From IMG/VR virus record IMGVR_UViG_3300021376_000124, positions 1 to 42,555 of that record: a stretch of 42,555 bases of DNA. One strand, given 5' to 3'. Positions 13,739-26,999 of this stretch are shown here, piece after piece; position 1 is the stretch's first letter; each line of letters opens with the position of its first letter. The stretch is from a virus. The position numbers and the translations under genes were made by a program. A model generated the notes under the pieces. The model saw only the letters and a program-made list of their open reading frames with translations. It searched no databases and was not told the origin of the DNA.

Positions 13739-15481
13739 ATGAAACTAATTAATGAAGCTGAGATCTTCGATACCTGGTCGCCTATCATCGAACAGAAAGC
13801 TGGTATCACTGATCCTTCGAAAAAAGCGTGGTTGTCTAAGTACTGCCACTATCACTCCCTCAACGAGTCTGCCGGCGCATACCAGTCGTTGAACGTCGTC
13901 AACGGTATGGGAGCCGTTGCACCTCCTGTTTTCCCAGCAGCAACACTAGCCGGTTCACTTAACGGTTATGGCCCTAACCAAGGATTCTACAGCAATACTT
14001 GGCAAGGATCTGGCGATAAGTTCCCTTCACTTCTTCCTTTGGCTATTCAGGTAGCTGCGAAGACTGTAGGTTTCGACATCGTTCCAGTAATCCCAATGTC
14101 CGGTCCTTCCGGCGTTTTGTCTTATCTAGACTACGTGTATGCCGGCGGTAAACTCAACCCTGGTAATATAACTGCAAACTCAAGTTCAGCTGAAGCTTTG
14201 GCAAATGCTCCTACTATGATTAAGCTGCAGATCACTGATCCAGGAGCTGATTACTCAAATTTCAGCTTATCGGCAACTGTAGGTGCACCTGTCGTAATTA
14301 CTAGTGGTACTTCACCTCTTGCTTTTATCACCACTCAATTTGTAGGTCTATCTAGAATCGACGGTTTCCCAATTTTCAAAATCACTGGCATGACCGAAGG
14401 TGAGACTGTTGCATCTGTTGTTAATGGGACTAATGACAACCCAACTAAAGTAGGTACAGCTGCAACTCAAAGTAACTACGGTACTACTACAGGAACCGCT
14501 TCTTTGGTGAAAGCGCTTGAAGATCACATTCAGGGTTTCTCTGGTGCTGGTTTCTATGACGACAATAATTGGCAGGGTCCTTTCGTAGATGGTACGAAGA
14601 CTTACAACCCAATGCTCAGAAGCGTAGGTGAAGAAAACTACTACGAGATGATGGGTCTTTCGACCTTCACCAAGTTTGTAGAAGCCGACACCTTCCAGGT
14701 AGCTGCTTCCGTTACCACGGAGCAAATCCAGGACCTTAACAAGCAGTTCGGTATCGATGTAATTTCTATGATCGAGAATGCTCTGGTTAACGAGGTTTCT
14801 CAGGCGATTAACAAGCACATTCTGGCTAGAGCTTTTGCACTAGGCTGGTCTAACTGCTTTGATTTCAACGCAGTTGAAGGACAAAATCTGAACCTGAATT
14901 TGGTTATTGGTGGTACTGCTGGTTCTTACACCATTCCTTCCTATGTTGGAAAAACAGACGTGGCTTTGACTATGACTGGTACCGCAGGACCTGCATCTGG
15001 TACATATGAGAACTTGTCAACTCTTCAGAGAAGACTTTTCTCCCGTATTCTTGCAGCCGCCAACGTGGTAGCAAACAGAGGAAGAAGAGGTCCTGCTAAC
15101 TTCATCATCACCAATGCAAACTTGGCTTCGGCGATGCAAGATATCAGCCAATTCACCTTTGCTCCTTTCACCAATACTTTGACTCAGAACAACGGTACTT
15201 TGTACCCAGTTGGATCTTTGGCCGGTATGACCGTGTATGTGGACCAAAACATGAAGTACAACGACACCAGAATCCTCGTTGGAAGAAAAGGTGGTGATGA
15301 TGAGCCAGGTCTCAAATTCATGCCTTACATGATGGCAGAATCAATTCAGACAATCTCTGAAGGTACAATGTCACCTAAAATCGCAGTTAAGTCTCGTTAC
15401 GCTCTAGTAGAAGCTGGTTTCCATCCAGAAACCATGTATCTCTGCTTTAACGTTAACGTGCCTACTGGCGGTCTGGTTTAA
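13739..15481 (+). CDS. gp23: Major capsid protein (T4 gp23-like)
   Basis: Forms the capsid hexamers. The start resembles the gp23 propeptide (AEIFDTWSPIIEQK compared with AELLNKWKPLLE in T4). FDIVPVIPMSGPSGVLSYLD matches the AFDICGVQPMNSPTGQVFAL region of gp23, and RRGPANFIITNANLASAM and YRVYID-like segments follow in order. It is 580 aa against 521 in T4. The propeptide probably ends at SLNE (residues 40-43), before Ser44, fitting the (L/I)-x-E rule; a mature chain of 537 residues is predicted. Codon choice is visibly richer in C and G at third positions than in neighbouring genes, as expected for the most abundant virion protein. A strong terminator lies 22 bases after the stop. Confidence 0.93.
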   Translation: MKLINEAEIFDTWSPIIEQKAGITDPSKKAWLSKYCHYHSLNESAGAYQSLNVVNGMGAVAPPVFPAATLAGSLNGYGPNQGFYSNTWQGSGDKFPSLLPLAIQVAAKTVGFDIVPVIPMSGPSGVLSYLDYVYAGGKLNPGNITANSSSAEALANAPTMIKLQITDPGADYSNFSLSATVGAPVVITSGTSPLAFITTQFVGLSRIDGFPIFKITGMTEGETVASVVNGTNDNPTKVGTAATQSNYGTTTGTASLVKALEDHIQGFSGAGFYDDNNWQGPFVDGTKTYNPMLRSVGEENYYEMMGLSTFTKFVEADTFQVAASVTTEQIQDLNKQFGIDVISMIENALVNEVSQAINKHILARAFALGWSNCFDFNAVEGQNLNLNLVIGGTAGSYTIPSYVGKTDVALTMTGTAGPASGTYENLSTLQRRLFSRILAAANVVANRGRRGPANFIITNANLASAMQDISQFTFAPFTNTLTQNNGTLYPVGSLAGMTVYVDQNMKYNDTRILVGRKGGDDEPGLKFMPYMMAESIQTISEGTMSPKIAVKSRYALVEAGFHPETMYLCFNVNVPTGGLV

Positions 15482-15502
15482 TCCTAACCAGATAACAACA
15501 AG

Positions 15503-15530
15503 AACCCCAGGCTTTGGCCTGGGGTTTTTT
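15503..15530 (+). terminator. Intrinsic terminator after the major capsid gene
   Basis: CCCCAGGC (15505-15512), a TTTG loop and GCCTGGGG (15517-15524) form a perfect 8-bp GC-rich stem, extended by AA/TT, followed by six T. It separates capsid transcription from the internal-protein genes. Confidence 0.92.
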
Positions 15531-15544
15531 GTTTGGGAAGAAAA

Positions 15545-15553
15545 GATATATAG
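15545..15553 (+). promoter_or_regulatory. Candidate late promoter element GATATATAG
   Basis: GATATATAG begins 29 bases before the ATG at 15574 and just after the capsid terminator, so a new transcription unit is expected here. It fixes the start of the following gene at 15574. Confidence 0.55.
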
Positions 15554-15573
15554 ATAAAAATAAAACCCCAGTC

Positions 15574-16155
15574 ATGGCGAAAGTACAAGATTTCAATACC
15601 TATGTCGATTCACAGTTCGGATCAAAATCCAATAATTCACATATCAAAGAAGGATTGATGGATTCCCTAGCTAATGCGATTGACTCAATTATGCCATTTT
15701 CTAAAACCAAAACAGTCAATTTCATTGTAGACAATATTTTGGAATACGAAAAAGAAATGTTACAGGCTAAATATGATCACATGAAGGATTTAGAAGCAAA
15801 AAGAAGAAAGATGAAAGAGTTAGACAGAATTGATCCTAATTATGATGATGCTGTCAAAGCTATAAAAAATGAGTTAGAATCGAAAGAAAAACAGTACAAA
15901 GCAATGATCAAATCAAAAACAGTGGCAATTGAAAGGGGAAGAGAATTAATGAGGAAAGAGGCAATTAAGTCACCTAGATTGAAAGAAATCATCAAAGCAA
16001 AAGAAGCTGAGATGGAGATCCTATTGGCAGAATTCGAATACGATCTTGCTAAAAAAATATCAGCTGAAGCAGAAGAAATTCAAAATTTGAAAGATGCTAT
16101 TCAGAAAGCAAAGGATGATGCCAAACAAATGTTGGATAAATTGAGAAATCCTTAA
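15574..16155 (+). CDS. Coiled-coil probable internal head (core) protein
   Basis: The start was placed at 15574 because the frame continues upstream through the terminator and promoter. The 193-residue protein begins MAKVQDFNTYVDSQF, with HIKE|G near residues 27-31 as a possible protease site. Residues 60-193 are almost pure charged helix (Lys/Glu-rich, heptad-like), for example KDLEAKRRKMKELDRID and AEEIQNLKDAIQKAKDDAKQ. No enzyme motif is seen. Its place directly after the major capsid gene, with two more helical proteins following, suggests a prohead core or co-packaged internal protein such as T4 gp67, gp68 or the IP proteins. The assignment is from context. Confidence 0.65.
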   Translation: MAKVQDFNTYVDSQFGSKSNNSHIKEGLMDSLANAIDSIMPFSKTKTVNFIVDNILEYEKEMLQAKYDHMKDLEAKRRKMKELDRIDPNYDDAVKAIKNELESKEKQYKAMIKSKTVAIERGRELMRKEAIKSPRLKEIIKAKEAEMEILLAEFEYDLAKKISAEAEEIQNLKDAIQKAKDDAKQMLDKLRNP

Positions 16156-16168
16156 AAAAAATTTTCAT

Positions 16169-17080
16169 ATGGTTTACAATTTTCGGCAGTGGGATAAATT
16201 TACTTCTTTGAACGAAGCTAATGCTCTTGAAAAAATTTTCGGGTGGTTTGGTTCTATCTTCGGCGGAACTGTTTCTAAAATTGATTCTTACTTAGAAGAT
16301 ATTATTGATTTAGAAGAGGTTTATGCTAAAGAGTGGGACAATATCGTAACAGAGATTGATTCACTAGAGGTCCAGAAGGCCCAAATTTCTAACGATCCTG
16401 CGGAATCTAGAAAATTAGATAGGATGATTGATAGAAACGAAAAATTACTACAATCTGCATTGAGGAAAAAAAATTCTTCTATTAATGATATACAAGATAA
16501 AGTTATAAAATTAACAGAAAAAGATCCTAAATTAGTCTCATATTGGAATCTGAAAAAAACCCAGGCAGAAAAGGATGTTGCTGAAAGATTGTATGATATT
16601 TCGAAAAAACTTACAAATACTGATTTAGGAGAAGAATTATACGACAAATACAAACAAGCTGCTTTATCTGCCAAACAAAAAGACGAGGATTTCAGAAAAA
16701 AATATGGGGATATGAAATTGCCACCTTCTGAAAATTTTAAATCTTCGACTTCTATGAAATCACCTAAAATTTATGGACCTTCTAAAATTTCAAAGTCTAC
16801 ACTTACTAGAATTTTGGGGGATTCTGGGATTGAATTTGAAAAATATGCCTCCAATTTGTCTGTAGAAGATGCGAAAGACTTGATCAGAGAACTAACCAGA
16901 GTGAAAAATGAAATGTGTGCTCTTCGGGATTTAGACATTGAGAGATTTGAAAGTGAAGCAAAAAGAAAAGGAATGAGTGATGCCCAAATTAGAAAAGAAA
17001 TTAAAGCCATCAAAGACTATCATACTGACAAAATAGGAGATGTCAGAACTAAAATAACTATAGCTAGGAGATATGACTAA
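16169..17080 (+). CDS. Probable internal head protein with capsid-targeting-like leader
   Basis: The N-terminus MVYNFRQWDKFTSLNE ends in LNE at residues 14-16, followed by Ala. This is like the T4 capsid targeting sequence MKTYQEFIAE|A, which is cut by gp21. The next residues (ALEKIFGWFGSIFGG) are amphipathic. The rest of the 303 residues is mainly charged helix with long coiled-coil stretches (VEDAKDLIRELTRVKNEMCA; KRKGMSDAQIRKEIKAIKDY). No catalytic motif was found. It overlaps the next gene by 8 bases. Predicted to be packaged with the scaffold core and possibly injected; the packaging role is inference. Confidence 0.67.
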   Translation: MVYNFRQWDKFTSLNEANALEKIFGWFGSIFGGTVSKIDSYLEDIIDLEEVYAKEWDNIVTEIDSLEVQKAQISNDPAESRKLDRMIDRNEKLLQSALRKKNSSINDIQDKVIKLTEKDPKLVSYWNLKKTQAEKDVAERLYDISKKLTNTDLGEELYDKYKQAALSAKQKDEDFRKKYGDMKLPPSENFKSSTSMKSPKIYGPSKISKSTLTRILGDSGIEFEKYASNLSVEDAKDLIRELTRVKNEMCALRDLDIERFESEAKRKGMSDAQIRKEIKAIKDYHTDKIGDVRTKITIARRYD

Positions 17081-17342
17081 AATTATTTTAAATCTTGGTG
17101 ATTTTTCTTTAAATGAGGATGTAAATTCGGATTTAGTAAATGCCAAAAAGGCTGTAAACGACCAACTTCAAGCAATTAGAGATGAGATTCAAAACGAGAA
17201 AACCCAAACAGAGGTGGCTCAAAAATCTGCCAGTTTAAAAAAGCAGGCAACACTTTATGCCGCACTACCCGCTATGTTGAACAAACTGGCGACAGCAATG
17301 GAAGCTAAAGAAAAGTCAGGAGATAAAACAAACATATACTAA
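17073..17342 (+). CDS. Small helical protein with capsid-targeting-like leader
   Basis: An 89-residue protein starting MTKIILNLGDFSLNE, with LNE at residues 13-15 followed by Asp. The remaining 74 residues are a single long charged helix (DVNSDLVNAKKAVNDQLQAI, then a Lys/Ala-rich end), which suits a small core or internal protein like T4 gp67, gp68 or IP proteins. Translation is probably coupled: the start overlaps the previous gene by 8 bases, and the next ATG follows the stop by two bases. Confidence 0.66.
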   Translation: MTKIILNLGDFSLNEDVNSDLVNAKKAVNDQLQAIRDEIQNEKTQTEVAQKSASLKKQATLYAALPAMLNKLATAMEAKEKSGDKTNIY

Positions 17343-17344
17343 AG

Positions 17345-19813
17345 ATGCATAATTATTTCACACACAATCCGGCTGCAAGGGCCATCATTTCGGATTACAT
17401 GAAACTGAATGAGAACTCTTCTGTGGATAATCTCCTAAAGAGAGCCACCGAAATTTGTCTTGATACATTCAAAAAAATTGTATTTGATTTGGCTTCACAT
17501 GAAAATCGTAACCCTGATGTGCTAAGAGCCATGTTAACGGATGTCGCATCTGCCAAAACTGTTAGAAGTTTAATTGCAAAAATTAAAGATTATTCTTCGG
17601 AAGCGGATCTCGGGGATTCTAGGTTTTCTAAAGTTAAAAACATGTACATGAATGCATTGAATTCTATGGGAGATGCTCTTAAAAGGCTTGTCGAAATAGA
17701 TTCTAAATTGGAAGATTCTATAATTGACACCTACAAAAACTCGGCTGATAGATTGATTCTTTCCTTGGATTCAATTGCATTGAGTTATTCTAAAAAGAAA
17801 TCAGCTAACGAATCTATGAATTACAATTTTAATCTAGATTCATTGAACGAGTCCATATTTATTGGATTTAGGGGTAGAATCGAAAAATTGAGAAAAAAGT
17901 TGGTTAATTTGATTTCAGATTCCAAAGGAAAGGATGCAAAAAATGGATATGGTAGAGATTGGCAAAGACTTTTCACCGCTCTAGAACAGAAATTAGATGC
18001 AATCGAAGATTCAAAGGATCTAACGGGAGAAAAGGATAAAAAAACATTGTCTGAATTAGAAAAACAAACAGATTCTCTTTCTGAGGAATATTACAGTTAC
18101 AAAATCAAAACTGCAGAGATGAGCATGAAAAAGATCATCGATGACGATGAACTTGTGACAAAATATTCGGATGTAAACCAAATTATTACAGATGCCTTAG
18201 ATATCATAGCCAAAGCAAACACTCAAGAGTTATTGATCGATAAATCCATAAGAGAGGAAATGGATGATATGGAGCAGAAGATAATCCAAAAAGTTTTCCC
18301 GATCAAAATTGGGGCAAAGGACACAGACCTCAAATTTAAGAAGTCTGGTATCATCGCTGCTGTACAAAAATCCCTTATGGCAGCTTTCCCCCCGTTCAAA
18401 ACTTTCCTTCAAAAACACGGAGGGGCAGACGGTAAATACGGAAGGGCAACTTCTATTGCAATTAAATCCATTCAATCTTTGTTGGGAAATAAAAATGCAA
18501 ATGGAGAATTGGACAAACCCTTGTTCGATTCTTTATTGAAAATGGAACAGATATCTGCAGATAATAAGAAAATGCTGATAAAGGCTTTGGGAATTTTGAA
18601 GAAAACATACGCCATGTCAGAATCACAAGTTCTTGATTTGGAAAAATTTTCGAAATTGTTTGAAGCTATTTTCATAGATGATGACGATTTAGAAAGAGAA
18701 ATCGAGAAGAATTCTGCTGATTTATCAAATTTTACGGACACAAAAACACCACAAAGTAAGGAAGAAAAACCATTTTTAATAGAAGATTCAAATCTGGCAA
18801 AAAAATTGTCCAAATTACTTAGGAATGGCTACAACAAAAATGCAGAAGAGGAAGATTTCCTAAGAGAGGATGGTAGTTTGAAAAGTTCTTATCCAAATGA
18901 ATTTGTAGAAGCTTGGATCAAAACAATAGAGCAGAACAAAAATGAATCAGATAAACCTGCCTTTTTTTGGTTCCAAGAAGCTGATGAAAAAATAGGAGCT
19001 CTGTACTCCACCAAAAGATTGGCGGGGAATTACAAAAAACCTTACAATTGGGAAAAATGGAAGGTTTTTTCTGGGGGAGAAACCCCAGAAGATAAGGATT
19101 CTTTCGCTCGTTGGTACACAAGTTATTTTACTAGATTAGGTGGCTTGCAGGATGATCAAAGGGAAAAGGTAGCTTCTGAAATTCTGAATTTTTATTCTGA
19201 TCCGAAAAACTCAACAGAAGTTAATCCAAAGTTGGAAGAAGAATTTAAAGAATGTGCGAGTTTTTATGATGACATCAAAGATACTTTAAGGGGAGGAAAA
19301 TCTAACCCAGATTCTGATCCTTATGAATATTTCAAGCAAGGTTACTTGAATTCAGAAAGTTTGTCTAAAATATTGCAGGCAGCTTCTTCTGCAGCCCAGA
19401 TTGATGATGAAGATCCAGATTTAGGATTTTATGATTTTGTAATCTTATCTGTTTGTGTTTTCTTATGTTCTTCAACTGTAGCATGGAATTCCGAAAAGAA
19501 AAAATGGGATTCTGCAATGAATATTTTGAAAGAAAAAGTTCTGAAAGAAAGCACAATAAAAAAAATTCTGGACAATAAAATTATTGAAACCGATCCAAAA
19601 TCCCCAATTCCGTTGCTCAATAAAGAAGGAGTAGAGGTTTTAACAAAAGGATATGATGGTAATTCTAAAAAGATTTTCAGAGAAAATTTCGAGAGAGCTT
19701 CTAAAGTTCTATCCCCGATTGTTCAGAGACACACAGATAGAATGAATTATAAAGCTAAAGAAGACATCAAAACCTTTGATTCGAATAACGTTTTTGTTGT
19801 TGATCTGGACTAA
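17345..19813 (+). CDS. Large internal virion protein with peptidoglycan-binding-like domain
   Basis: An 822-residue protein. The N-terminus ends in KLNE at residues 20-23, and a second tag-like stretch MNYNFNLDSLNE lies at residues 158-169, followed by SIFIGFRGR, as if two internal proteins had fused. Residues about 322-400 resemble the helical peptidoglycan-binding domain type 1: KKSGIIAAVQKSL, then GGADGKYGRATSIAIKSIQS, then a final FDSLL. The C-terminal 400 residues are acidic and helical, with one Trp-rich patch (FFWFQEADEK; YNWEKWKVFSGG) and a hydrophobic stretch near 695-715 (FVILSVCVFLCSSTVAW). It closes the operon of probable internal proteins after the capsid gene. A role in passage of DNA or protein through the cell wall is possible but unproven. 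Confidence 0.66.
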   Translation: MHNYFTHNPAARAIISDYMKLNENSSVDNLLKRATEICLDTFKKIVFDLASHENRNPDVLRAMLTDVASAKTVRSLIAKIKDYSSEADLGDSRFSKVKNMYMNALNSMGDALKRLVEIDSKLEDSIIDTYKNSADRLILSLDSIALSYSKKKSANESMNYNFNLDSLNESIFIGFRGRIEKLRKKLVNLISDSKGKDAKNGYGRDWQRLFTALEQKLDAIEDSKDLTGEKDKKTLSELEKQTDSLSEEYYSYKIKTAEMSMKKIIDDDELVTKYSDVNQIITDALDIIAKANTQELLIDKSIREEMDDMEQKIIQKVFPIKIGAKDTDLKFKKSGIIAAVQKSLMAAFPPFKTFLQKHGGADGKYGRATSIAIKSIQSLLGNKNANGELDKPLFDSLLKMEQISADNKKMLIKALGILKKTYAMSESQVLDLEKFSKLFEAIFIDDDDLEREIEKNSADLSNFTDTKTPQSKEEKPFLIEDSNLAKKLSKLLRNGYNKNAEEEDFLREDGSLKSSYPNEFVEAWIKTIEQNKNESDKPAFFWFQEADEKIGALYSTKRLAGNYKKPYNWEKWKVFSGGETPEDKDSFARWYTSYFTRLGGLQDDQREKVASEILNFYSDPKNSTEVNPKLEEEFKECASFYDDIKDTLRGGKSNPDSDPYEYFKQGYLNSESLSKILQAASSAAQIDDEDPDLGFYDFVILSVCVFLCSSTVAWNSEKKKWDSAMNILKEKVLKESTIKKILDNKIIETDPKSPIPLLNKEGVEVLTKGYDGNSKKIFRENFERASKVLSPIVQRHTDRMNYKAKEDIKTFDSNNVFVVDLD

Positions 19814-19830
19814 CCGAATCAATTTTACCT

Positions 19831-19838
19831 TATATTTG
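19831..19838 (+). promoter_or_regulatory. Candidate host-type (Bacteroidota) promoter box TATATTTG
   Basis: TATATTTG fits the Bacteroidota -7 consensus TAnnTTTG and lies 17 bases before the ATG at 19855. No clear TTG box is visible at the usual upstream distance, so the call is tentative. It would let host RNA polymerase express the accessory cassette. Confidence 0.42.
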
Positions 19839-19854
19839 TTCCTATAATTTAAAT

Positions 19855-20211
19855 ATGAACAGAATTTTATTTTTCTTTTTTTTATTTTTCATTTCCTGCC
19901 GGGATGATTTGAATATTGTACCTATAGATCCATATATTTCAAAGCAATTTACTTCAAGAGAGCTTGTCTATCCCATTCAAAGTATGAAATCCCGTATGGA
20001 GGTTTATCCTTTATTTTTCGAGCTACAAAGATCTTTATCTGTATTCAAAATAGAGAGCCCAGGTGAATTTAGAAAATTCGAAAGTTTACAAAATGATTCT
20101 ACTCGTGCCAATTTCCTCAAGAGAAATAGAAAATTTATAAGAATCTGGGGAAGGTTAGGATATTCGAAAAAGGAACTTAATTCTATTAAACACATAGAAC
20201 CAATCAGATAA
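19855..20211 (+). CDS. Predicted lipoprotein, unknown function
   Basis: A 118-residue protein with a classic lipoprotein signal: MNR, a Phe/Leu-rich core, then FISC with Cys18 as the lipidated residue, followed by RDD, an acidic start of the kind seen after the Cys in Bacteroidota surface lipoproteins. The mature part is basic and mixed helix (KFIRIWGRLGYSKKELNSIK). No family was recognised. In phages such proteins can be outer-membrane spanin subunits, superinfection-exclusion lipoproteins or surface modifiers. No partner inner-membrane spanin was seen, so a choice is not possible. It is followed after 9 bases by the glycosyltransferase-like gene. Confidence 0.68.
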   Translation: MNRILFFFFLFFISCRDDLNIVPIDPYISKQFTSRELVYPIQSMKSRMEVYPLFFELQRSLSVFKIESPGEFRKFESLQNDSTRANFLKRNRKFIRIWGRLGYSKKELNSIKHIEPIR

Positions 20212-20220
20212 ATTATCTGA

Positions 20221-21063
20221 ATGGGTCAACAGCCTATTTATTTACTGGTCTTTTATACGGAGGGATTCCCCCATGACGAGGGATATGATTTATCAAAGAT
20301 CTCGAACGACATTAAAAGAGTTTTGAGTGGCGTTTTCACTGATATTTTTGATTTTACCCCCAGAAAATTAAAAAAAATTGCTGGATCTGAGAATTTTTGC
20401 AATTCTTTTGAATCCGAATTGTTGCTGAATCCAGGATTAGATAAAGTTGGAAACGGAGACTTCAAATCTTTTTTGATTCACCACTTTTTGAAGCAAATAC
20501 CAGAAAATAGTATTTTGATTTATCATGATTCGAACTTCGAAAAATACCCACAATATTGGCAAACTGATTGGATTAGAATTAGAGAGACTTGCAATTTTTT
20601 GATGGACAGTAATTCTTCAGATTTTTTCATCCCGTGGGAAGAAAGAAATTTCAAAAGTGGATTTCCTTTGGTTAAGCATTTTGGTAAAAGGTACACAACT
20701 GAATTTTTCTTTCCCGAATCAAAAATAAGGAATATCATAGAAGATAGTCCGATGCTCACCTCAAACAGAATTATCATCAGAAATACATCCGAATCTAGGA
20801 AATTTTTTCATGATTACAATCATATAAATGAAAATAAGGATTTACTTTCCAAATGGCCTAATCCATCCCCCCATCCAGAATTTATACACCATTGTCCAGA
20901 ACAACACACATTGAATTTACTTGTTTATAAATATATTTTAGATGGAAAATTGGAACCAACCTTTCCTAAATTTCGTTTTCTTCATCGAAAAATGAGGTTG
21001 GATGATTCTTTAGAAGAATACCAAAATCTTCCTCTATTAAATTACTTAAAATCAAAAAAATGA
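20221..21063 (+). CDS. Putative glycosyltransferase-like protein
   Basis: A 280-residue protein of a sugar-transferase type I recognise only loosely. ENSILIYHDSNFEKYPQYW has a strand ending in acidic/polar residues like the DxD region of GT-A enzymes, and IIIRNTSESRKFFHDY and HHCPEQHTLNLLVYKY resemble the NTxxSRxFxxxW and DQ-x-LN-x-L-x-YK segments of such transferases. No membrane segment was found. It overlaps the P-loop kinase gene by 4 bases (ATGA). Together with the next two genes it may modify a glycan or surface component. Alternative: an unrelated phage-specific family. Confidence 0.5.
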   Translation: MGQQPIYLLVFYTEGFPHDEGYDLSKISNDIKRVLSGVFTDIFDFTPRKLKKIAGSENFCNSFESELLLNPGLDKVGNGDFKSFLIHHFLKQIPENSILIYHDSNFEKYPQYWQTDWIRIRETCNFLMDSNSSDFFIPWEERNFKSGFPLVKHFGKRYTTEFFFPESKIRNIIEDSPMLTSNRIIIRNTSESRKFFHDYNHINENKDLLSKWPNPSPHPEFIHHCPEQHTLNLLVYKYILDGKLEPTFPKFRFLHRKMRLDDSLEEYQNLPLLNYLKSKK

Positions 21064-21596
21064 TCACAATATTTGAAGGTGCCAGAAATTCAGGAAAAAC
21101 TTTTTTAGCAAACAAATACTCACAACAAACTGGAATTCCAATTTTCAAGTTTGAATTTGCAGGGTGGTTTTCTGGGTTAGGGATTCCAGACGAAGATCCC
21201 AAGACACATTATTTTGCCTTGGGTAAGGAAGCTATGCTTCTCCAACTCAATAGGGATGGTCTTTTACCCCATTTCATTTTAGACCGAGGGTTTCTAACAG
21301 TTCTAACCTGGGGAATCATAAGTAAGAGAATAACTCAGAAAGATGCTTTACAACAACTAAACCTTTTTAGGGATAAAGGATTACTTGTAAATTTGAAAGT
21401 TGTGGTGGTAGAAGGGACCAATCCAGAATCTAGAACAAAGGACAATTGGGATTTTAGAGAAGGTACCACGGGGGAAAAAGAAACCTTGATTAATTTTATT
21501 TCCGTGATCAAATTGATTCAACCAGATATTGAAATTGTGAAACTTACCAACGATTTTACCCATATGACCACAAAAAATCTAATTCATTTGATTTGA
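21060..21596 (+). CDS. P-loop kinase, thymidylate kinase-like
   Basis: Walker A is FEGARNSGKT (residues 5-14) at the very N-terminus. FILDRGFLTVLTWG near residues 72-85 has the D-R motif of thymidylate and deoxynucleoside kinases, where Arg contacts the phosphates. A strand VVVVEG follows near residue 117, and a flexible Arg/Lys-rich region (ESRTKDNWDFREGTTGEKE) fits a lid. At 178 aa it is slightly short for a dTMP kinase (about 205). The substrate cannot be told: it could be dTMP, another NMP, or a metabolite used with the neighbouring glycosyltransferase and asparagine synthetase genes. One base separates its stop from the next ATG. Confidence 0.7.
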   Translation: MITIFEGARNSGKTFLANKYSQQTGIPIFKFEFAGWFSGLGIPDEDPKTHYFALGKEAMLLQLNRDGLLPHFILDRGFLTVLTWGIISKRITQKDALQQLNLFRDKGLLVNLKVVVVEGTNPESRTKDNWDFREGTTGEKETLINFISVIKLIQPDIEIVKLTNDFTHMTTKNLIHLI

Positions 21597-21597
21597 T

Positions 21598-23034
21598 ATG
21601 TGTGGTATTTTTATTAATGTAGACGGGGAAAGCTCAAGATTAAATTCTATTTCGCATAGGGGAATAGAATCAAATACTATCGAGAGAGAAGGTGTTTTCT
21701 TGTCCCATGTTAGGCTTCCTATTCAAACTCAAGAGGGGGATGGATGGAAACAACCCATTGAAATCTCATCTGGGATTTTCTTATTGTATAATGGAGAAGT
21801 CTTCAACTATGACAGAACTGTCTTTGGATCCGATATAGAATATCTCTGTCAAACATTCGCCACCTGGAAAGGAGGTTCGCTTCAAATGTTTTGCTCCATG
21901 TTTATTCCCAAAATCCAAACCTGGGACGGTTTTTGGTCCATAGCCATCTATGATTCCAAAACCAAAGATATAATTTGTTTTACGGATCCACTTGGAAAAA
22001 AATGTTTATATACAAACGATGACGGGGAACTTTCCTCAGAAATTAAGGCTGTTAAACATTGGTTCAGCCCACACGACTCACATTTCATTTCTACTGTCCG
22101 AAAATTTGGATATGTTACTGATGATTCAACACCTCATCGAGATGTGAAAAGAATTTTACCCAATACGATTTACCATTACAATTTGGAAGTTCCAAATTTC
22201 AAATCTACCTACCCAAATTATTATAGAAGTTTGAATTTTCCAATTCAAAATCTAACACCAGGAGATTATGAAGCTCATGTGGATTGGTTATGGACAAAAC
22301 TTTTCGAATCTGTTCGTAATAGATTGATTTCTAAAAATTATCCTATTTCTCTTTTGGTTTCTGGAGGTTTAGATTCATCGATTATTGCTGGGATTTTGAC
22401 ACAGATGGCACCAGAAGTAAAATGGTTTTCCATAGAAAATGGGGAATCGAAATTTGTCAACATTCTATCCGAATTTTATCAGAAACAAGTTAATTTTCTG
22501 GATTACAACATGGATGAGTCCAGATTAAAACAAATCTATCAAGAATGGAACGAAAGTCCCATAGATCTTGGTTCGGTCATTCCCCAATTTTTTCTATTCG
22601 AAGCGGTTAAAAATCAAGGAGATTCTAGAATTGTATTAAGTGGAGATGGGGCGGACGAACTTTTTGGTGGATATTCTAGAATTAATGAGTATGATTCACA
22701 ATTTTCTGATGTTTTCGATGAACTCAGATTTTATCATCTTCCTAGATTGGACAAGCTTTCTATGGCACACACTTTAGAACTCAGAAATCCATTTTTACAC
22801 CTAGACATTGTTCGTTTTGCCTTACATTTACCGAAAGAATGGAGAACAGATAAAAAAATTCTGAAGGATACTTTTGGCCCTTTACTCCCCCCTGAGATTG
22901 TAGATCGTCCAAAAGAGGCATTGAAAAATCCAAGAATTAAGGAAGACAAGTTGAAGTATCGTCAACAGGTTGTTGATCTTTTTTTAGAAACAGAACAAAC
23001 TAAATCATTTTCTGAAGCTGAAGTAGATATATAG
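21598..23034 (+). CDS. asnB: Asparagine synthase (glutamine-hydrolysing) family
   Basis: Transfers the amide nitrogen of glutamine to an ATP-activated carboxylate. MCGIF places the catalytic Cys at position 1 after Met removal (class II glutaminase); LLYNGEVFNY and DGFWSIAIYD are glutaminase-domain motifs. The synthetase domain has the PP-loop LVSGGLDSS near residue 255, LSGDGADELFGGY and ELRNPFLHLDIVRF. At 478 aa it is shorter than E. coli AsnB (554), with a brief C-terminus. Family members also amidate sugars, lipids or peptides, so free asparagine is not the only possible product. The last codons and stop lie inside a GATATATAG element that probably drives the next gene. A metabolic or surface-modifying role is inferred from neighbouring glycosyltransferases. 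Confidence 0.86.
   Translation: MCGIFINVDGESSRLNSISHRGIESNTIEREGVFLSHVRLPIQTQEGDGWKQPIEISSGIFLLYNGEVFNYDRTVFGSDIEYLCQTFATWKGGSLQMFCSMFIPKIQTWDGFWSIAIYDSKTKDIICFTDPLGKKCLYTNDDGELSSEIKAVKHWFSPHDSHFISTVRKFGYVTDDSTPHRDVKRILPNTIYHYNLEVPNFKSTYPNYYRSLNFPIQNLTPGDYEAHVDWLWTKLFESVRNRLISKNYPISLLVSGGLDSSIIAGILTQMAPEVKWFSIENGESKFVNILSEFYQKQVNFLDYNMDESRLKQIYQEWNESPIDLGSVIPQFFLFEAVKNQGDSRIVLSGDGADELFGGYSRINEYDSQFSDVFDELRFYHLPRLDKLSMAHTLELRNPFLHLDIVRFALHLPKEWRTDKKILKDTFGPLLPPEIVDRPKEALKNPRIKEDKLKYRQQVVDLFLETEQTKSFSEAEVDI
23026..23034 (+). promoter_or_regulatory. Candidate late promoter element GATATATAG overlapping a stop codon
   Basis: GATATATAG begins 28 bases before the ATG at 23054, and its final TAG is the stop codon of the asparagine synthase gene. 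Spacing matches the other copies. Confidence 0.5.
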
Positions 23035-23053
23035 AAAAAATTTACTCAGTAAA

Positions 23054-23788
23054 ATGAAAAATGTACAAAATTTCGATGAGTTTACTTCCTCTAAAGTTAA
23101 TGAAAACTTTCTTGGAAATTTTTTCTCTGGTACAACGAATTTTATAGGAAACCTTTTCACTAAAGGATGGGGAGCAGTCACAGATGTTCTAAAGAACAAG
23201 GTAACAGCTTATCTTCTTCAATACCTTGGAATTGGGGAAAACACGATTTTTTCCCAATTAGTTCAGCAAATGGTAGAACAATTCGATGTTAAAGATTATT
23301 GGGCCATATTATTCAATGGAAAGGCAGATGCAAAGTACTTGGCACCAAAAGCGGCTAAGGCAACACAAGAATTTTTGATCAAAGAAGGTTTAGATGGAAT
23401 AGCGGAAAAATTGGGGGTAACCGACAAAAACGGGTATTTATTCAAAACTATATCTGAATATATTCAAAACGAAACAACAACAGGAAATTTTTCGAAAACC
23501 CTGGAAAATTTCTATATGCAATTATTCGGATCGGCTCCAACGAACTCAGCACAAGATTTTGTTAGTAAATTAAGCCCTTCAGAAAAAAGTCAAATCAAAA
23601 ATGAAGTTGTGACAAAGGCTAAATCTCAAGGTGTGGAAGTGAAAACAAGAGAGGAAGAAGACAATATGGTAAATAATTTATTTTCAAATTTAGGTTCATT
23701 AAATCAATCCAATCAAGGACAAATTGCTACAACTTCTGGGGAAGATTTATTTGGTAAACTATTAGGTCCTATGTTGCCCAAAAAATAA
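23054..23788 (+). CDS. Unknown protein with capsid-targeting-like leader
   Basis: A 244-residue protein starting MKNVQNFDEFTSSKVNE, with VNE at residues 15-17, the same style as the internal-protein candidates after the capsid gene. An amphipathic Phe/Gly-rich segment follows (FLGNFFSGTTNFIGNLFTKG), then mixed helix with hydrophobic patches and a Gln/Asn/Ser-rich C-terminal region ending DLFGKLLGPMLPKK. No enzyme motif was seen. A GATATATAG element 28 bases upstream suggests late expression, consistent with a virion protein. The next small gene follows after 10 bases. Confidence 0.62.
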   Translation: MKNVQNFDEFTSSKVNENFLGNFFSGTTNFIGNLFTKGWGAVTDVLKNKVTAYLLQYLGIGENTIFSQLVQQMVEQFDVKDYWAILFNGKADAKYLAPKAAKATQEFLIKEGLDGIAEKLGVTDKNGYLFKTISEYIQNETTTGNFSKTLENFYMQLFGSAPTNSAQDFVSKLSPSEKSQIKNEVVTKAKSQGVEVKTREEEDNMVNNLFSNLGSLNQSNQGQIATTSGEDLFGKLLGPMLPKK

Positions 23789-23798
23789 AAAACAAAAC

Positions 23799-24134
23799 AT
23801 GAATATAAATGACGTCTCGAAAAGAGAAATTTTAGATTTCAAAGATTTTCTAGGAAAAGTAATGGACAATACATTCAAACCTTTAGCTGCAGAAAATCAA
23901 AAAAATTCTTATGATAGAACAGGATTTCATAAGATCAAAAGAGAACCCGCTTATGATTTTGTTGGATATGCCGATGCTGTATTTTCTCCAAATAAAGCCG
24001 GTATTGGTTTGCCTGGTTACAACGCCGGTAAAGACAGACAGTACATTAATGCAATTGGTGGACCTGGATTAGCTCCTACCAACGAATCGGAAGTCATAGA
24101 TTATAGTAAAATTAAAAGGTTGAAGGATTTCTAA
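23799..24134 (+). CDS. Small unknown protein, possible virion component
   Basis: A 111-residue protein. The N-terminus (MNINDVSKREILDFKDFLGK) has the F-x-x-F spacing of the tag-like leaders but no clear L-x-E end. The centre is rich in Gly, Pro, Tyr and Asn (GIGLPGYNAGKDRQYINAIG), suggesting an extended or loop-rich structure. It ends in SKIKRLKDF. It shares a transcript with the preceding protein and is followed by a strong terminator. Function not recognised. Confidence 0.6.
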   Translation: MNINDVSKREILDFKDFLGKVMDNTFKPLAAENQKNSYDRTGFHKIKREPAYDFVGYADAVFSPNKAGIGLPGYNAGKDRQYINAIGGPGLAPTNESEVIDYSKIKRLKDF

Positions 24135-24153
24135 AAATACAAATTCAAGGTTC

Positions 24154-24185
24154 AAGGACGGGTTTGAAACTCGTCCTTTTTTTTT
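24154..24185 (+). terminator. Intrinsic terminator
   Basis: AAGGACG and CGTCCTT pair around an extended stem (GGTTTG/AAACT with one G-T wobble), followed by a run of T ending at 24185. It ends the 23054-24134 unit, and a promoter-like GATATAAGA follows at once. Confidence 0.87.
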
Positions 24186-24194
24186 GATATAAGA
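24186..24194 (+). promoter_or_regulatory. Possible short variant of the late promoter element (GATATAAGA)
   Basis: GATATAAGA, one TA step shorter than the main motif, begins 24 bases before the ATG at 24210 and right after a terminator, where a new promoter is needed. Confidence 0.4.
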
Positions 24195-24209
24195 ATCAAA
24201 TTTTATTTC

Positions 24210-24881
24210 ATGTCTAAAATTCGATTGGTTCACATATTGACCGAAACAGATACGCCAAGGGAACAAGCATCCATTGCTTCTTTATCCCCCCTTTCAAATT
24301 TTGGATTAGAATATGTACAACAAATAAACCAAAGATACGTTGGTGACGACTGGAAATCAACTAAGGCTTTGTGTCAAAATGAATTTACAAATCATGGACC
24401 TGGACATTATGGAGCTTTCCAATCTTTTAAAAAGGCTATGCTGGAAAATTTCAACGACGATCTAGATGCCTTAATTCTTTGCGAATGTGATTGTGTTCTA
24501 GAGGTAACCCCGGAGGATTTCATGAAAACAGTATCAAGGGCTATTGGATTTTGTAACAAACACGAGATACGTTATTTTTCCCTAGGATCTAGGTTCGTTA
24601 ACGGAATTTTACAGTCCCCAGTTTCAGAAGTAGATTCAGATTTTACAGAATTTTATATCACACCAAAAATTATTTTGGCACATTGTGTTATCTTACCCCG
24701 CTGTGGTAGAGAATTTTATTTGGATCGTTTAGGCGAAAACAATTGGGATTCTCCTGATCTTTGGTTCAATGAAATCAATTGGTTACATGGTAACTTTAGA
24801 TTCGGTATCTCCTTTGAGAGATCTGCTTTTCAACACGAGGGACATTCTTTGATTGATAATTGTTGGAAAGATTCACAATAA
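24210..24881 (+). CDS. Putative GT-A-type glycosyltransferase
   Basis: A 223-residue soluble protein. The start KIRLVHILTE with REQASIASL, followed by GHYGAFQSFKKAM and then DALILCECDCVLEV, follows the order seen in small phage and capsule glycosyltransferases. The acidic CECDC strand end would be the DxD-like site binding the nucleotide sugar and metal. Later ILPRCGREFYLDRL and an EINWLHG segment could hold acceptor residues. It could glycosylate phage DNA, virion or host surface; nothing here decides. Its last bases overlap the end of the convergent minus-strand gene by 9 bases. Confidence 0.55.
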   Translation: MSKIRLVHILTETDTPREQASIASLSPLSNFGLEYVQQINQRYVGDDWKSTKALCQNEFTNHGPGHYGAFQSFKKAMLENFNDDLDALILCECDCVLEVTPEDFMKTVSRAIGFCNKHEIRYFSLGSRFVNGILQSPVSEVDSDFTEFYITPKIILAHCVILPRCGREFYLDRLGENNWDSPDLWFNEINWLHGNFRFGISFERSAFQHEGHSLIDNCWKDSQ

Positions 24882-25580
24882 AGCAAGTTGGTTTTCCAGA
24901 TCTTTGATAAAAAGTTCTTTGGCAATTTTCAAAATGTTAGATTCCTCGTTGAAATCCTCGTGAATTTCAATCACGGTGACTTTTGGAGTTATATATTGAA
25001 CTCCTACGTTAACCAAAATTTCATTTACTAGATAATCATAAGATATTGAAAAAAAATTGTTGTAAATTCTAACCCTTTTCATCATAATTCCAAAAGAAGA
25101 GGCATTAGAATATCTCGACCACCAGTATGAATAAATTTCATCGGTGGCAAGATTTCTAACCAATAAAATCCCATAATCTGATTTTTTATCTGGCGTTAGA
25201 TTGTAGACTGAAATTCTTTTTTCCAATTTCTTCCAAATACTCGTTCCTAAATCGGCATACTTGTACAAACAATCCAAAGACAAATCAACTATTGACCGAA
25301 GTTCTTCTTTTTGCTCTTCTGTAAATTTTGATTTTATAAATTTTTCGAAAATTTGAATTTCTTCTTGGTCCATTTTTTGGATATCCAATTTTTCGTTTGC
25401 CAAAATTTTTTCTGAAAATTTCAAACCCTTGATGGAAGAAAAAATTTGTTGGATTGGATGATAGATATTGTCCCTTCGAATTTCTTCATTTACTTCTTGT
25501 AGAAAGTCTAACAAAATGTACTGTTTGTGTTCGGTATCTATGGGTGACTGTAGAAACCAGGTGGACTCGAGATTTTTCAT
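24873..25580 (-). CDS. Unknown protein, only minus-strand gene
   Basis: A 235-residue protein with no signal peptide or membrane segment. It opens with ESTWFLQSPIDTEHKQYILLDFLQEV, long helices follow (residues 30-130, Lys/Glu-rich), and it ends in a mixed domain with DEIYSYWWSRY and KVTVIEIHEDF. I have a vague recollection of related proteins with the same opening in other large phages but no function. It is transcribed against all its neighbours and overlaps the end of the glycosyltransferase-like gene by 9 bases, so it needs its own promoter, possibly the AT-rich element at 25609-25620. Opposite orientation suggests early or differently timed expression. Confidence 0.72.
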   Translation of the reverse strand: MKNLESTWFLQSPIDTEHKQYILLDFLQEVNEEIRRDNIYHPIQQIFSSIKGLKFSEKILANEKLDIQKMDQEEIQIFEKFIKSKFTEEQKEELRSIVDLSLDCLYKYADLGTSIWKKLEKRISVYNLTPDKKSDYGILLVRNLATDEIYSYWWSRYSNASSFGIMMKRVRIYNNFFSISYDYLVNEILVNVGVQYITPKVTVIEIHEDFNEESNILKIAKELFIKDLENQLALL

Positions 25581-25608
25581 GGCCGTTGGTTTAAATTTTT
25601 GAAATTCA

Positions 25609-25620
25609 TCATATATATTC
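25609..25620 (-). promoter_or_regulatory. Possible promoter element of the minus-strand gene
   Basis: On the minus strand the sequence reads GAATATATATGA, about 40 bases before the ATG. It resembles the GATATATAA family but is farther from its start and on the other strand. Confidence 0.3.
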
Positions 25621-25654
25621 TTGGGTCGGCCCTAAAAAGGAAAATAGAGTTGAC

Positions 25655-25663
25655 GATATATAA
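25655..25663 (+). promoter_or_regulatory. Candidate late promoter element GATATATAA
   Basis: GATATATAA begins 27 bases before the ATG at 25682. The spacing supports that ATG over the in-frame TTG at 25673, which would leave only 18. Confidence 0.5.
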
Positions 25664-25681
25664 ACAAAGTAATTGTCATAC

Positions 25682-26116
25682 ATGAGGATTCAAGATTTTA
25701 GTTCGTATTCGGTTCAAAAGAAAAAAAGGTTCACTTCGGAGCACACTTTCACGGCATCTTTGGATTATGTGGATGTCAAATTGACAAACCGCCCCCCTGA
25801 ATTATCCGATGTAGATGATTTAAAATGTGATATTGAATATGAAATTTCTATTGAAAGACAAAAACGAGGAGTTCAGGATATATCATTCAAAATTAACCAA
25901 ATTGAGTTAGAAGTGAAAGTTGACGACCATCCAGATGATCCGAAAGAATTTGAATTTGAAATTGTTCCAGGAGAAAATATCGATTCTAATCTGGTCATCA
26001 TTCGGAAAGGGGAATCCCTAATTCCAACCGATCCAACCTTCTTACATATAGATATGAAAAAATCTGCCAAGGTAGCAGATTTCCAAGTCACAGTTTTGTT
26101 CGGAAAAAATGAATAA
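25682..26116 (+). CDS. Unknown beta-rich small protein
   Basis: A 144-residue protein. The start was placed at ATG 25682 from promoter spacing; a TTG three codons upstream is possible. It opens MRIQDFSSYSVQKKKRF, with the F-x-x-Y pattern of the leaders seen in internal-protein candidates but no L-x-E. The body alternates hydrophobic and charged residues, predicting beta strands (DISFKINQIELEVKVDD; EFEFEIVPGENI; DFQVTVLFG). No motif recognised. It overlaps the next gene by 8 bases and shares its transcript. Confidence 0.6.
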   Translation: MRIQDFSSYSVQKKKRFTSEHTFTASLDYVDVKLTNRPPELSDVDDLKCDIEYEISIERQKRGVQDISFKINQIELEVKVDDHPDDPKEFEFEIVPGENIDSNLVIIRKGESLIPTDPTFLHIDMKKSAKVADFQVTVLFGKNE

Positions 26117-26999
26117 TTTAGTTCCCAATTTCGAAAATTTCTTTTCTTTGAATGAGTCTAAATTTTCCAGCAAAAAAAATTTAGGAATCATAGGACCTTT
26201 GGCGAATTGGTCTCTCAAAATTCAGGTTTATCCTGAACCCAATCAGGGTATGATTGGCTATGCCTTGGATGAAAATTGGATTGAACTGAAACACCAGGAC
26301 AAGAAGGTGAGATTTCCTAAATCTTGTTGTGAAATGAAGTCCAGCCCAAAATCTGCTATTATTCACATAAGGCCTTACACCAAGTGGTTCTCGAAATTGA
26401 AGAATAGAGAAGAGATGGATGATTTCATCGAGAATTTTGTAGAATCTCACGCGGTTAAAAAAGAAAGTGGTCTAGAAGGAATAGCAGAAAACACCCAAAT
26501 CATTTTGGACTTATTTGGCATACATTCACAAGTAGAAAATACCGAAAGTAGATTTCCCGGTCTGTATGAAATGAAATTGGACAACGGGATGGAGATTGAG
26601 ATGGAAAAAAATGAAGAATCTGAGCTTTTTTCACAAATGAAAATTTACAAATCCCGTGATGAAAAATTCCCAGACGTGAGGATAAAAAGAAAGAACGATG
26701 AATTTGTGATGGAATTCAGGGGTAGATCTGGTAAATTTGTGCAGTCGGAAGAATCTTTAGTTAATCTTTTTGAAAATAAAATTTGCACATATCTAACTAA
26801 ATGTGTTTTGGAGATGGACTGTTCTGAAGAAGAATCACATTTGATCGGAAAGTTAAAAGAAGCTTTGTCCGAAAAAGTGGATCTCAAAAATTCAGACAGA
26901 ATAGAAAAGAAGAAAAAAACAATAGAAAATTTGAGGGGGGTCCTGAGTAATTCCATAGAAAATTCACTTCTCGAAGATATTTTACAGAAGGAAGATTAG
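26109..26999 (+). CDS. Unknown protein with capsid-targeting-like leader
   Basis: A 296-residue protein starting MNNLVPNFENFFSLNE, with LNE at residues 14-16 followed by Ser: the same position and motif as the protein at 16169, although the bodies are unrelated. The body has a beta-rich segment (WSLKIQVYPEPNQGMIGYAL), a Lys/Arg-rich middle and a long C-terminal helical region (residues 215-296, ending in coiled coil). No catalytic motif. Predicted as a packaged protein if the leader is functional; otherwise unknown. Confidence 0.63.
   Translation: MNNLVPNFENFFSLNESKFSSKKNLGIIGPLANWSLKIQVYPEPNQGMIGYALDENWIELKHQDKKVRFPKSCCEMKSSPKSAIIHIRPYTKWFSKLKNREEMDDFIENFVESHAVKKESGLEGIAENTQIILDLFGIHSQVENTESRFPGLYEMKLDNGMEIEMEKNEESELFSQMKIYKSRDEKFPDVRIKRKNDEFVMEFRGRSGKFVQSEESLVNLFENKICTYLTKCVLEMDCSEEESHLIGKLKEALSEKVDLKNSDRIEKKKKTIENLRGVLSNSIENSLLEDILQKED

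What the first reader, a model, noticed from the sequence alone, without database searches (positions are those of the whole stretch)
13739..26160. A family of capsid-targeting-like N-termini ending in (L/V)-x-E on otherwise unrelated proteins
Unrelated proteins share short N-termini of aromatic/Asn-rich character ending in x-N-E: residues 14-16 LNE (gene at 16169), 14-16 LNE (26109), 13-15 LNE (17073), 15-17 VNE (23054), 21-23 LNE (17345); looser matches are LGE at 12-14 (8206) and LNE at 7-9 (5214). The major capsid protein has SLNE at 40-43, in its propeptide region. Established: T4 internal proteins carry a capsid targeting sequence (MKTYQEFIAE followed by Ala) cut by gp21 after (L/I)-x-E. 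Inference: this phage uses the same system on many proteins, some encoded away from the head module, which would be packaged and perhaps injected.
Basis: partly seen in the sequence, partly recalled or inferred. Interest (0 to 1): 0.85.

Follow-up and report, generated by a model that had tools for sequence, protein, structure and literature searches.

The report
Capsid-targeting tags on huge-phage proteins
A family of very large bacterial viruses seems to mark many unrelated proteins with a short removable front-end label that would send them into the virus head during assembly, so that the virus's hidden cargo could be predicted from its genome.

Summary
The leaders are real. [LV]NE lies in residues 7-25 of 6 of 41 window genes (internal expectation 0.58). 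In relatives, the leaders of 8206, 16169, 17073 and 26109 keep an aromatic pair (F/Y/W/L-x-x-F/Y/W) followed by [LIVF]xE in 55 of 58 distinct N-termini. Seven leader families give 72 of 106; fourteen control families 2 of 169. 5214 fails; 15574 was missed.

In the T4 capsid-targeting sequence the corresponding residues (4, 7; 8, 10) target and direct cleavage (PMC9026906). The window encodes a gp21-like protease fused to 14 YxEYLAE repeats.

A 230-kb relative carries such leaders on unrelated proteins 70-180 kb from the capsid gene, one an adenylate kinase. By patterns written after inspection, LR756500, PAU, Lak-A2 and MA9V-2 have tags of their own on 35, 20, 15 and 5 proteins. In PAU, 4 of 5 proteins its record calls "internal capsid protein" are tagged (P = 8e-5). 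PTm1, MaF61 and RaK2 show little or nothing.

Best reading: lineage-specific capsid-targeting propeptides cut by the prohead protease. Packaging, cleavage and injection are not shown here.

The parts
8206..8247 (+). Leader of gene 8206-8985 (MGFPVSNFDDFLGE|N; TTG start). The body is a nucleotidyltransferase-like protein, degenerate in the window.
   Evidence: 15 of 15 distinct ortholog N-termini keep the motif; M1, F8, L12 and E14 are invariant in a 10-sequence alignment at 28-95% identity to the window protein; residues 1-25 have pLDDT under 50 in a model of mean pLDDT 65; an ortholog matches Pfam NTP_transf_2 at E 0.0019, below the curated cut-off; best Foldseek hit is the nucleotidyltransferase 2rff, E 5.6e-3
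11727..12347 (+). Prohead protease domain (S77/S80, gp21 type) of gene 11679-13712
   Evidence: phrog_207 3e-38; PF03420 Peptidase_S77 4.3e-9; H79 and S134/S135 invariant in alignment A4 (their catalytic role is from recall)
12558..13145 (+). 14 tandem 14-residue repeats, consensus YSEYLAENLDKSIS, in the protease/scaffold fusion (residues 294-489); each holds Y-x-x-Y-[LIV]-x-E
   Evidence: 13-15 copies in 20 of 20 relatives with at least 566 aa of this ORF; the 4 shorter fragments have 0-11
13739..13867 (+). [quoted passage not shown]
   Evidence: PF07068 3.2e-37; LNESAGAY in 28 of 30 relatives, the matches of the other two beginning beyond it
15574..15651 (+).
   Evidence: close relatives start at the same ATG, and distant ones keep LxE just before the same body start; LxE in 16 of 18, full motif in only 3 of 18
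16169..16216 (+). Leader MVYNFRQWDKFTSLNE|A of gene 16169-17080
   Evidence: 17 of 19 (12 of 14 with body under 50% identity)
17073..17117 (+). Leader MTKIILNLGDFSLNE|D of gene 17073-17342
   Evidence: 17 of 18, with Leu allowed as first residue of the pair
17345..17413 (+). Leader of gene 17345-19813 (NYFTHNPAAR...MKLNE|N); LxE conserved, aromatic pair mostly not in register
   Evidence: LxE in 16 of 16, full motif in 6 of 16
23054..23104 (+). Leader MKNVQNFDEFTSSKVNE|N of gene 23054-23788
   Evidence: 8 of 14 full motif (4 of 10 with body under 50% identity); some of the others have FSEF or FSDF with a shifted NE
26109..26156 (+). Leader MNNLVPNFENFFSLNE|S of gene 26109-26999
   Evidence: 6 of 6; degenerate in one further relative, G003

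Best explanation
The shared N-termini are capsid-targeting propeptides of the T4 type. During head assembly the aromatic pair (F/Y/W-x-x-F/Y/W) binds the protein to the inner scaffold core, so that bodies of unrelated kinds are carried into the prohead. The phage's own gp21-type protease, fused here to a scaffold-like stretch of 14 tandem YxEYLAE repeats, then cuts after [LIV]-x-E. This frees the cargo, matures the capsid protein at the same kind of site (LNE|S) and chops up the scaffold. Most likely the cargo is ejected with the DNA. Shown here: the motif, its conservation on diverging bodies, its presence on unrelated proteins in the clade, the protease family match and the matching site in the capsid protein. 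Inferred: binding to the scaffold, cleavage, packaging and ejection.
For: Motif conserved in 72 of 106 leader-family N-termini against 2 of 169 controls. A profile trained on five window families finds 13 of 234 held-out genes in the 230-kb relative G001 at a score of 12 or more, with 0.5 expected, and 30 of 563 in LR756500, with 3.1 expected. A search given no motif finds N-terminal similarity between unrelated bodies in LR756500 (470 pairs; 43 internal, 62-85 shuffled), PAU (92; 3; 2-6) and Lak-A2 (153; 39; 55-57). The adenylate kinase in G001 has the tag as an extra piece of about 21 residues: residue 23 aligns with residue 2 of solved adenylate kinases. Related bodies carry a Lak tag in Lak-A2 and an [LV]FE|[AS] start in G001 and G003, the latter outside my tag counts. 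In PAU 4 of 5 'internal capsid protein' labels fall on my 20 tagged genes, P = 8e-5. In T4, CTS residues 4 and 7 target and 8 and 10 direct processing (PMC9026906). MA9V-2's capsid protein itself carries WSEFINE|AA, and its protease fusion holds 12 of the 40 [LI]NE[SA] sites of the proteome in 1,207 of 67,397 residues.
Against: No virion protein data for this clade. In the window itself and ten shorter relatives the profile finds few or no further tagged genes outside the training families: window 0 of 32, G002 0/64, G003 3/107, G004 0/81, G005 0/62, G006 1/62, G007 0/57, G008 0/41, G009 1/37, G010 1/41, G011 1/34. The motif-free test shows no clear excess in G001 (11 pairs; 9 internal; 3-5 shuffled). 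The profile scores T4's own two internal-protein leaders only 6.2, below the thresholds used. PTm1 and MaF61, with related capsids, show no clear tag family, and RaK2 little. PAU gp70 is labelled internal capsid protein but is untagged, as are two 'internal capsid vertex' proteins (4 of 7 if these count, P = 5e-4), and the record does not state what its labels rest on. Of the 17 tagged G001 genes three look false on inspection: 9969 (an HxGH-type enzyme motif, from recall), 45151 (the 5214 ortholog) and 146129 (no Glu). Three of the 35 in LR756500 lack LxE in register. Strict YxxYLxE repeats are specific to the window clade; LR756500's scaffold has 2, MA9V-2's none.
Confidence: 0.85

Rival explanations
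1. The leaders are propeptides cut by the prohead protease, but the proteins are structural parts of the head or inner body that stay there. Nothing is ejected and the aromatic pair has no targeting role of its own.
For: The proteins at 15574, 16169 and 17073 have no family match over a cut-off and look rich in charged, helix-prone sequence by eye, next to the capsid gene, which fits core or inner-body proteins. In SPN3US, gp53 and gp54 share an N-terminus and are head proteins, gp54 highly abundant (PMC5694885 and PMC10052503, passages).
Against: Tagged bodies elsewhere in the group include an adenylate kinase, a RimK-type ATP-grasp protein, a polynucleotide phosphatase domain, a metallopeptidase and leucine-rich-repeat proteins, which are not typical scaffold parts. 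The aromatic pair is as well conserved as the LxE site in four families.
Confidence: 0.3
2. The shared N-termini come from recombination: gene starts (upstream region plus first codons) were copied between genes, with no function at the protein level.
For: Tagged genes are partly clustered in LR756500 and PAU. PAU tags (17 genes) share codons more than expected (0.71 against 0.51), and upstream 30-mers of 6 Lak-A2 tagged genes are more alike than those of other genes (0.54 against 0.41).
Against: In LR756500 (20 genes) the synonymous codons of the tag are more varied than codon usage predicts (0.67 against 0.77), and upstream 30-mers are no more alike than between other genes (0.40 and 0.40). 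In the window families the motif persists where bodies have diverged below 50% identity.
Confidence: 0.05
3. The N-termini address some other site, for example a phage-made compartment, the membrane or a chaperone, and the LxE is coincidental.
For: Amphipathic aromatic N-termini can bind membranes or chaperones (recall); the N-terminus of T4's head protein directs proteins to GroEL (title of a reference seen in the passages of PMC10052503).
Against: LxE before a small or polar residue is kept in the leaders, and the same kind of site is present in the capsid propeptide of every relative that covers it. In MA9V-2 the tag, the capsid site and the protease fusion share [LI]NE[SA].
Confidence: 0.08
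4. Coincidence or compositional bias of N-termini in AT-rich phages.
For: PTm1 shows no excess, and MK- or N-rich starts are common.
Against: Internal windows, shuffled N-termini and control families give far fewer matches.
Confidence: 0.02

Closest known systems
T4 capsid-targeting sequence (CTS) of the internal proteins, with the gp21 protease
   Same: Short N-terminal propeptide; aromatics three residues apart (T4 residues 4 and 7) followed by L/I-x-E; gp21-family protease; gp23-type capsid protein with the same kind of site; unrelated bodies share the leader
   Different: Gap between aromatic pair and LxE is 0-7 residues in the window families, 0 in T4; the next residue is mostly S, A, G, D or N, sometimes K or E; many more tagged proteins, among them metabolic enzymes; the protease is fused to a repeat stretch; the consensus is lineage-specific (FxxF...LNE, YxxFLxE, LYE...LNE, LLESLFDD)
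phiKZ / SPN3US prohead protease substrates and ejection proteins
   Same: Gp21-related protease cuts many head proteins after Glu; SPN3US gp53 and gp54 share an identical 15-residue N-terminus that its authors liken to T4 CTSs (PMC5694885, passages)
   Different: Motif is S/A-x-E; in SPN3US two propeptides are 20 and 24 residues and the other N-terminal ones 111-254 (PMC10052503, passages); no tag family of tens of proteins in the passages I saw
Phage P1 DarB capsid-targeting signal
   Same: N-terminal 30 residues suffice to send a reporter into the capsid (PMC9024508, abstract and passages)
   Different: Not compared by sequence here; no scaffolding protein has been identified in P1 (same paper)
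Head-packaged effectors fused to MuF, portal and the like
   Same: Aim of delivering enzymes with the virion (PMC9503650, passages)
   Different: Delivery there is argued from fusion to structural domains or gene context, not from a cleavable N-terminal tag

Membership tests
T4-type capsid-targeting sequence | Short N-terminal stretch ending in L/I-x-E before a small residue | tested here: met
   [LIVF]xE mostly followed by Ser, Ala, Gly, Asp or Asn
T4-type capsid-targeting sequence | Targeting residues at T4 positions 4 and 7 (aromatic pair, spacing 3) | tested here: met
   Met for 8206, 16169, 26109, for 17073 with Leu in the first place in many, and for 8 of 14 of 23054; not met for most of 17345 and 15574; T4 role from PMC9026906
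T4-type capsid-targeting sequence | Shared by proteins with unrelated bodies | tested here: met
   Window 5 tagged in 5 body families; G001 17 (3 doubtful) in 17; LR756500 35 in 26, or 32 in 23 with LxE required; PAU 20 in 20; Lak-A2 15 in 14
T4-type capsid-targeting sequence | Leader removed from the protein in mature virions | not testable with these tools
   No virion mass spectrometry at hand for this clade
T4-type capsid-targeting sequence | Leader sufficient to package a foreign protein | not testable with these tools
   Needs a reporter assay
gp21 / S77 prohead protease | Sequence match to the family | tested here: met
   PF03420 E 4.3e-9, over the curated cut-off; phrog_207 3e-38
gp21 / S77 prohead protease | Cleavage activity and specificity | not testable with these tools
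   Specificity inferred only from the shared LxE sites
gp23-type capsid with cleaved propeptide | Family match and LxE site at the presumed propeptide end | tested here: met
   PF07068 3.2e-37; LNESAGAY in 28 of 28 relatives that cover it; cleavage itself not testable
Tag as mimic of the scaffold repeat | Scaffold repeats and leaders share Y/F-x-x-Y/F-L-x-E in the same phage | tested here: inconclusive
   14 of 14 repeats in the window, strict match in one window leader (8206), looser in others; LR756500's fusion is degenerate (2 strict), no protein of Lak-A2, PTm1, PAU or T4 has more than 2, MA9V-2's fusion has none

The most novel reading that the evidence does not exclude
Huge phages with T4-type capsids run a lineage-specific address code. 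The tag imitates the phage's own scaffold unit (YxEYLAE repeats here), any gene that gains the tag becomes virion cargo, and tag and scaffold change together. Each phage would then deliver tens of different proteins, many of them enzymes, all readable from its genome.
Probability: 0.35. Interest if true: 0.85.

Novelty: new variant of a known kind. Interest (0 to 1): 0.72.

Why it matters
What large phages carry into the cell in their heads is mostly unknown, because most of these phages have never been grown. If the tag is a capsid address, the packaged proteome of uncultured huge phages can be listed from sequence alone. That list already names enzymes (an adenylate kinase, a RimK-type ATP-grasp protein, a polynucleotide phosphatase domain, a metallopeptidase) as candidates for host takeover or counter-defence at the moment of infection. 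It also gives T4's long-known targeting sequence a natural set of variants in which to study how tag, scaffold and protease change together.

Tried and rejected
5214 as a leader gene: rejected, 0 of 13. Genes 23799 and 25682 keep an aromatic pair near the N-terminus but have no LxE (0 of 10, 0 of 7); left out. A loose regular expression on whole genomes was too noisy in short genes and was replaced by a leave-one-family-out profile and a search without any motif. The tag patterns for LR756500, PAU, Lak-A2 and MA9V-2 were written after seeing that search, so their counts are descriptive, not tests; the PAU pattern also takes in one doubtful gene (177156). Profile hits judged false on inspection: G001 9969, 45151, 146129. 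Structure of the protease/scaffold fusion: mean pLDDT 37.9, repeats drawn as helices, not usable as evidence. The N-terminal extensions of huge-phage ribosomal protein S21 (PMC7162821, passages) might be tags: no S21 in 14 records searched, so not tested. Pfam was run on 9 of the 17 tagged G001 proteins and 17 of the 35 tagged LR756500 proteins: 4 of 9 and 8 of 17 reach a curated cut-off; one of each is a doubtful tag (146129 lysozyme; 254763 ATP-grasp, no Glu in register). RaK2 annotation was fetched for its first 50 kb only, and the supplement with its virion proteins could not be read, so RaK2's virion list was no test. Literature searches, in an open-licence library lacking most subscription papers, showed no paper describing such tags in these phages; eight papers were opened for passages and one section read whole (PMC9026906, section 2.6).
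Full report
What the window is. The window is a whole IMG/VR virus record of 42,555 bases, probably a fragment. Its head genes are of the T4 type: 11679-13712 starts with a gp21/S77 protease domain (phrog_207 3e-38, PF03420 4.3e-9) and 13739-15481 is a gp23-type capsid protein (PF07068 3.2e-37). The capsid protein has 30 relatives in IMG/VR found by pattern search, and 56 phage records match it by protein search, led by the 462-kb LR756500, Lak megaphages and other huge phages. So the window most likely comes from a huge phage of that group (inference).

The observation. [LV]NE in residues 7-25 occurs in 6 of 41 window genes, with 0.58 expected from internal stretches and no random draw of 5,000 reaching 6. 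The leaders are better described by two elements: an aromatic pair spaced by three, then [LIV]-x-E, mostly before Ser, Ala, Gly, Asp or Asn, with 0-7 residues between them. Preferred residues around the pair are I/V and K/N/R before it and D/E just before the second aromatic.

Conservation apart from the body. In 8-26 relatives per gene the leaders keep this motif while bodies diverge. Counting distinct N-termini, the full motif ([FYWL]xx[FYW], gap 0-9, [LIVF]xE, residues 2-30) is present in 15/15 (8206), 17/19 (16169), 17/18 (17073), 6/6 (26109), 8/14 (23054), 6/16 (17345) and 3/18 (15574), 72 of 106 in all. LxE alone is in 16/16 (17345) and 16/18 (15574). Fourteen control families give 2 of 169. 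In the alignment of 8206 at 28-95% identity, M1, F8, L12 and E14 are invariant, and residues 1-25 have pLDDT under 50 ahead of a better modelled domain (mean pLDDT 65). The relatives of 8206 show a nucleotidyltransferase-like motif (Pfam match below cut-off; Foldseek 2rff E 5.6e-3). The gene listed at 15514 most likely starts at ATG 15574, where its close relatives start, and has a leader too.

Beyond the window. A profile trained on five window families was run on genes outside those families. In the 230-kb relative G001 it finds 13 of 234 at a score of 12 or more (internal expectation 0.5, shuffled 0.3); I judge three of these false on inspection. In LR756500 it finds 30 of 563 (3.1, 2.7). 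The window (0 of 32) and the ten shorter relatives (0 to 3 each; G003 3 of 107) add little, and Lak-A2 (3 of 510), PAU (1 of 262), T4 (1 of 211) and PTm1 (0 of 254) show no clear excess. A comparison of N-termini that used no motif, and ignored pairs with related bodies, then showed that some of these phages have tags of their own: LR756500 MKYIKEYEEFLLEA-like (470 pairs; 43 internal; 62-85 shuffled), PAU MKT[LI]SKLYEAKLNEA-like (92; 3; 2-6), Lak-A2 two types (153; 39; 55-57), MA9V-2 MKTFxxFINEA-like (11; 9; 3-5, so only suggestive as a count). The same test gives 11, 9, 3-5 in G001, 13, 7, 1-5 in T4 and 10, 6, 7-13 in PTm1, 40, 26, 11-19 in RaK2 (its largest group being mostly long proteins with a QPKGS start, apparently tail spikes) and 5, 1, 1-2 in MaF61; G001 and PTm1 thus show no clear excess, and the other three little. 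By patterns written afterwards, or by profile, the tagged genes number 35 (LR756500, 26 body families; 32 in 23 when LxE is required), 20 (PAU, 20), 15 (Lak-A2, 14), 17 (G001, 17; three doubtful) and 5 (MA9V-2, 5). They are spread along the genomes; in G001 they reach 70-180 kb from the capsid gene.

What the tags sit on. In G001, an adenylate kinase (PF00406 1.9e-36) begins right behind the tag: residue 23 of the tagged protein aligns with residue 2 of solved adenylate kinases, so the tag is an added piece. Others are a RimK-type ATP-grasp protein (7e-33) and a protein with a peptidoglycan-binding domain (2.6e-12). In LR756500, tags sit on leucine-rich-repeat proteins, a polynucleotide kinase 3'-phosphatase domain (2.4e-21) and a DUF2201 metallopeptidase with VWA-like domain; an ATP-grasp protein (254763) has a tag-like start without the Glu. 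Related bodies can carry different starts in different phages: LakA2_547/548 (LLENLFDD type) against G001_129/131 (MKHLQSFSLFEA) and G003_0 (MRIKTFKVFES), the last three outside my tag counts, and the 8206 family has an untagged relative in Lak-A2. In LR756500 the tags differ at synonymous positions more than codon usage predicts and do not share upstream DNA, so protein sequence, not recent copying of DNA, keeps them alike; PAU tags share codons more than expected, and upstream DNA of six Lak-A2 genes is more alike than elsewhere.

A link to virions. The PAU record, read whole in pieces, labels five proteins 'internal capsid protein': gp70, gp142, gp154, gp199, gp270. Four of them are among my 20 tagged genes out of 290 called (hypergeometric P = 8e-5); gp70 is not. 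Two more, labelled 'internal capsid vertex protein', are untagged; counting them gives 4 of 7 (P = 5e-4). The protein labelled 'scaffolding' (gp152) is tagged, the decoration protein is not. The record does not say what the labels rest on, and my searches showed no paper on it. Sixteen of the 20 tagged proteins lack the label, so it was probably not assigned from the tag itself (inference).

The scaffold. The protease gene continues into 14 repeats of exactly 14 residues, YSEYLAENLDKSIS. The same strict pattern occurs only three times elsewhere in 12,859 window residues, one of them the 8206 leader. This suggests that the tag imitates a scaffold unit. Against generality: LR756500 has a degenerate 14-residue period with 2 strict matches, no protein of Lak-A2, PTm1, PAU or T4 has more than 2, and MA9V-2's fusion has none, though it holds 12 of the proteome's 40 [LI]NE[SA] sites. 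The predicted structure of the window fusion is too poor to use.

Comparison with what is known. In T4 the first 10 residues of IPIII suffice for entry into the head; residues 4 and 7 matter for targeting and 8 and 10 for processing; gp21 cuts after L/I-x-E; the reviewers suggest that the CTS may be how T4-like phages incorporate various proteins (PMC9026906, section 2.6 whole, other passages). SPN3US gp53 and gp54 share an N-terminus likened to T4 CTSs (PMC5694885, passages). DarB of P1 has an N-terminal capsid signal (PMC9024508, passages). So the kind of system is known. New here, as far as my searches go (open-licence library only), are its presence in this clade, the lineage-specific tags on tens of unrelated proteins including enzymes, and the tag-like repeats in the protease fusion.

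Verdict. The reading as capsid-targeting propeptides is well supported by sequence (confidence 0.85). Packaging, cleavage and ejection remain to be shown. The recount changed figures and wording, not the main odds; the recombination rival went from 0.04 to 0.05 because of the Lak-A2 upstream result.

Noticed in passing
L221 467-631 (T4, NC_000866 18966-19130): T4 gp61.1, a 54-residue hypothetical protein, starts MKTFKEFIKED, like a capsid-targeting sequence; profile score 11.5.
   Followed up: no
window 33062-35524: The 820-aa protein holds a run of about eight tandem repeats of the form RVYPxPxGDVYxxVPGSDLGxPD, counted by eye.
   Followed up: no
window 23799-24134 and 25682-26116: Two conserved proteins keep an aromatic pair near the N-terminus (LDFKDF, QDFSSY) but lack the LxE in the relatives examined.
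   Followed up: partly
LR756500 11706, 13446, 14298, 15077, 180975, 198761, 313385, 331859, 461001: The largest tagged body family in this 462-kb phage; five of the six members scanned match leucine-rich-repeat families.
   Followed up: no
window 19855-20211: Small protein with a lipoprotein-like start (MNRILFFFFLFFISC) downstream of the head genes.
   Followed up: no
PTm1 208831 and 224211: Two genes start MRKLYSVISEN and MKKLYDHISEN, a possible tag too rare to test.
   Followed up: no
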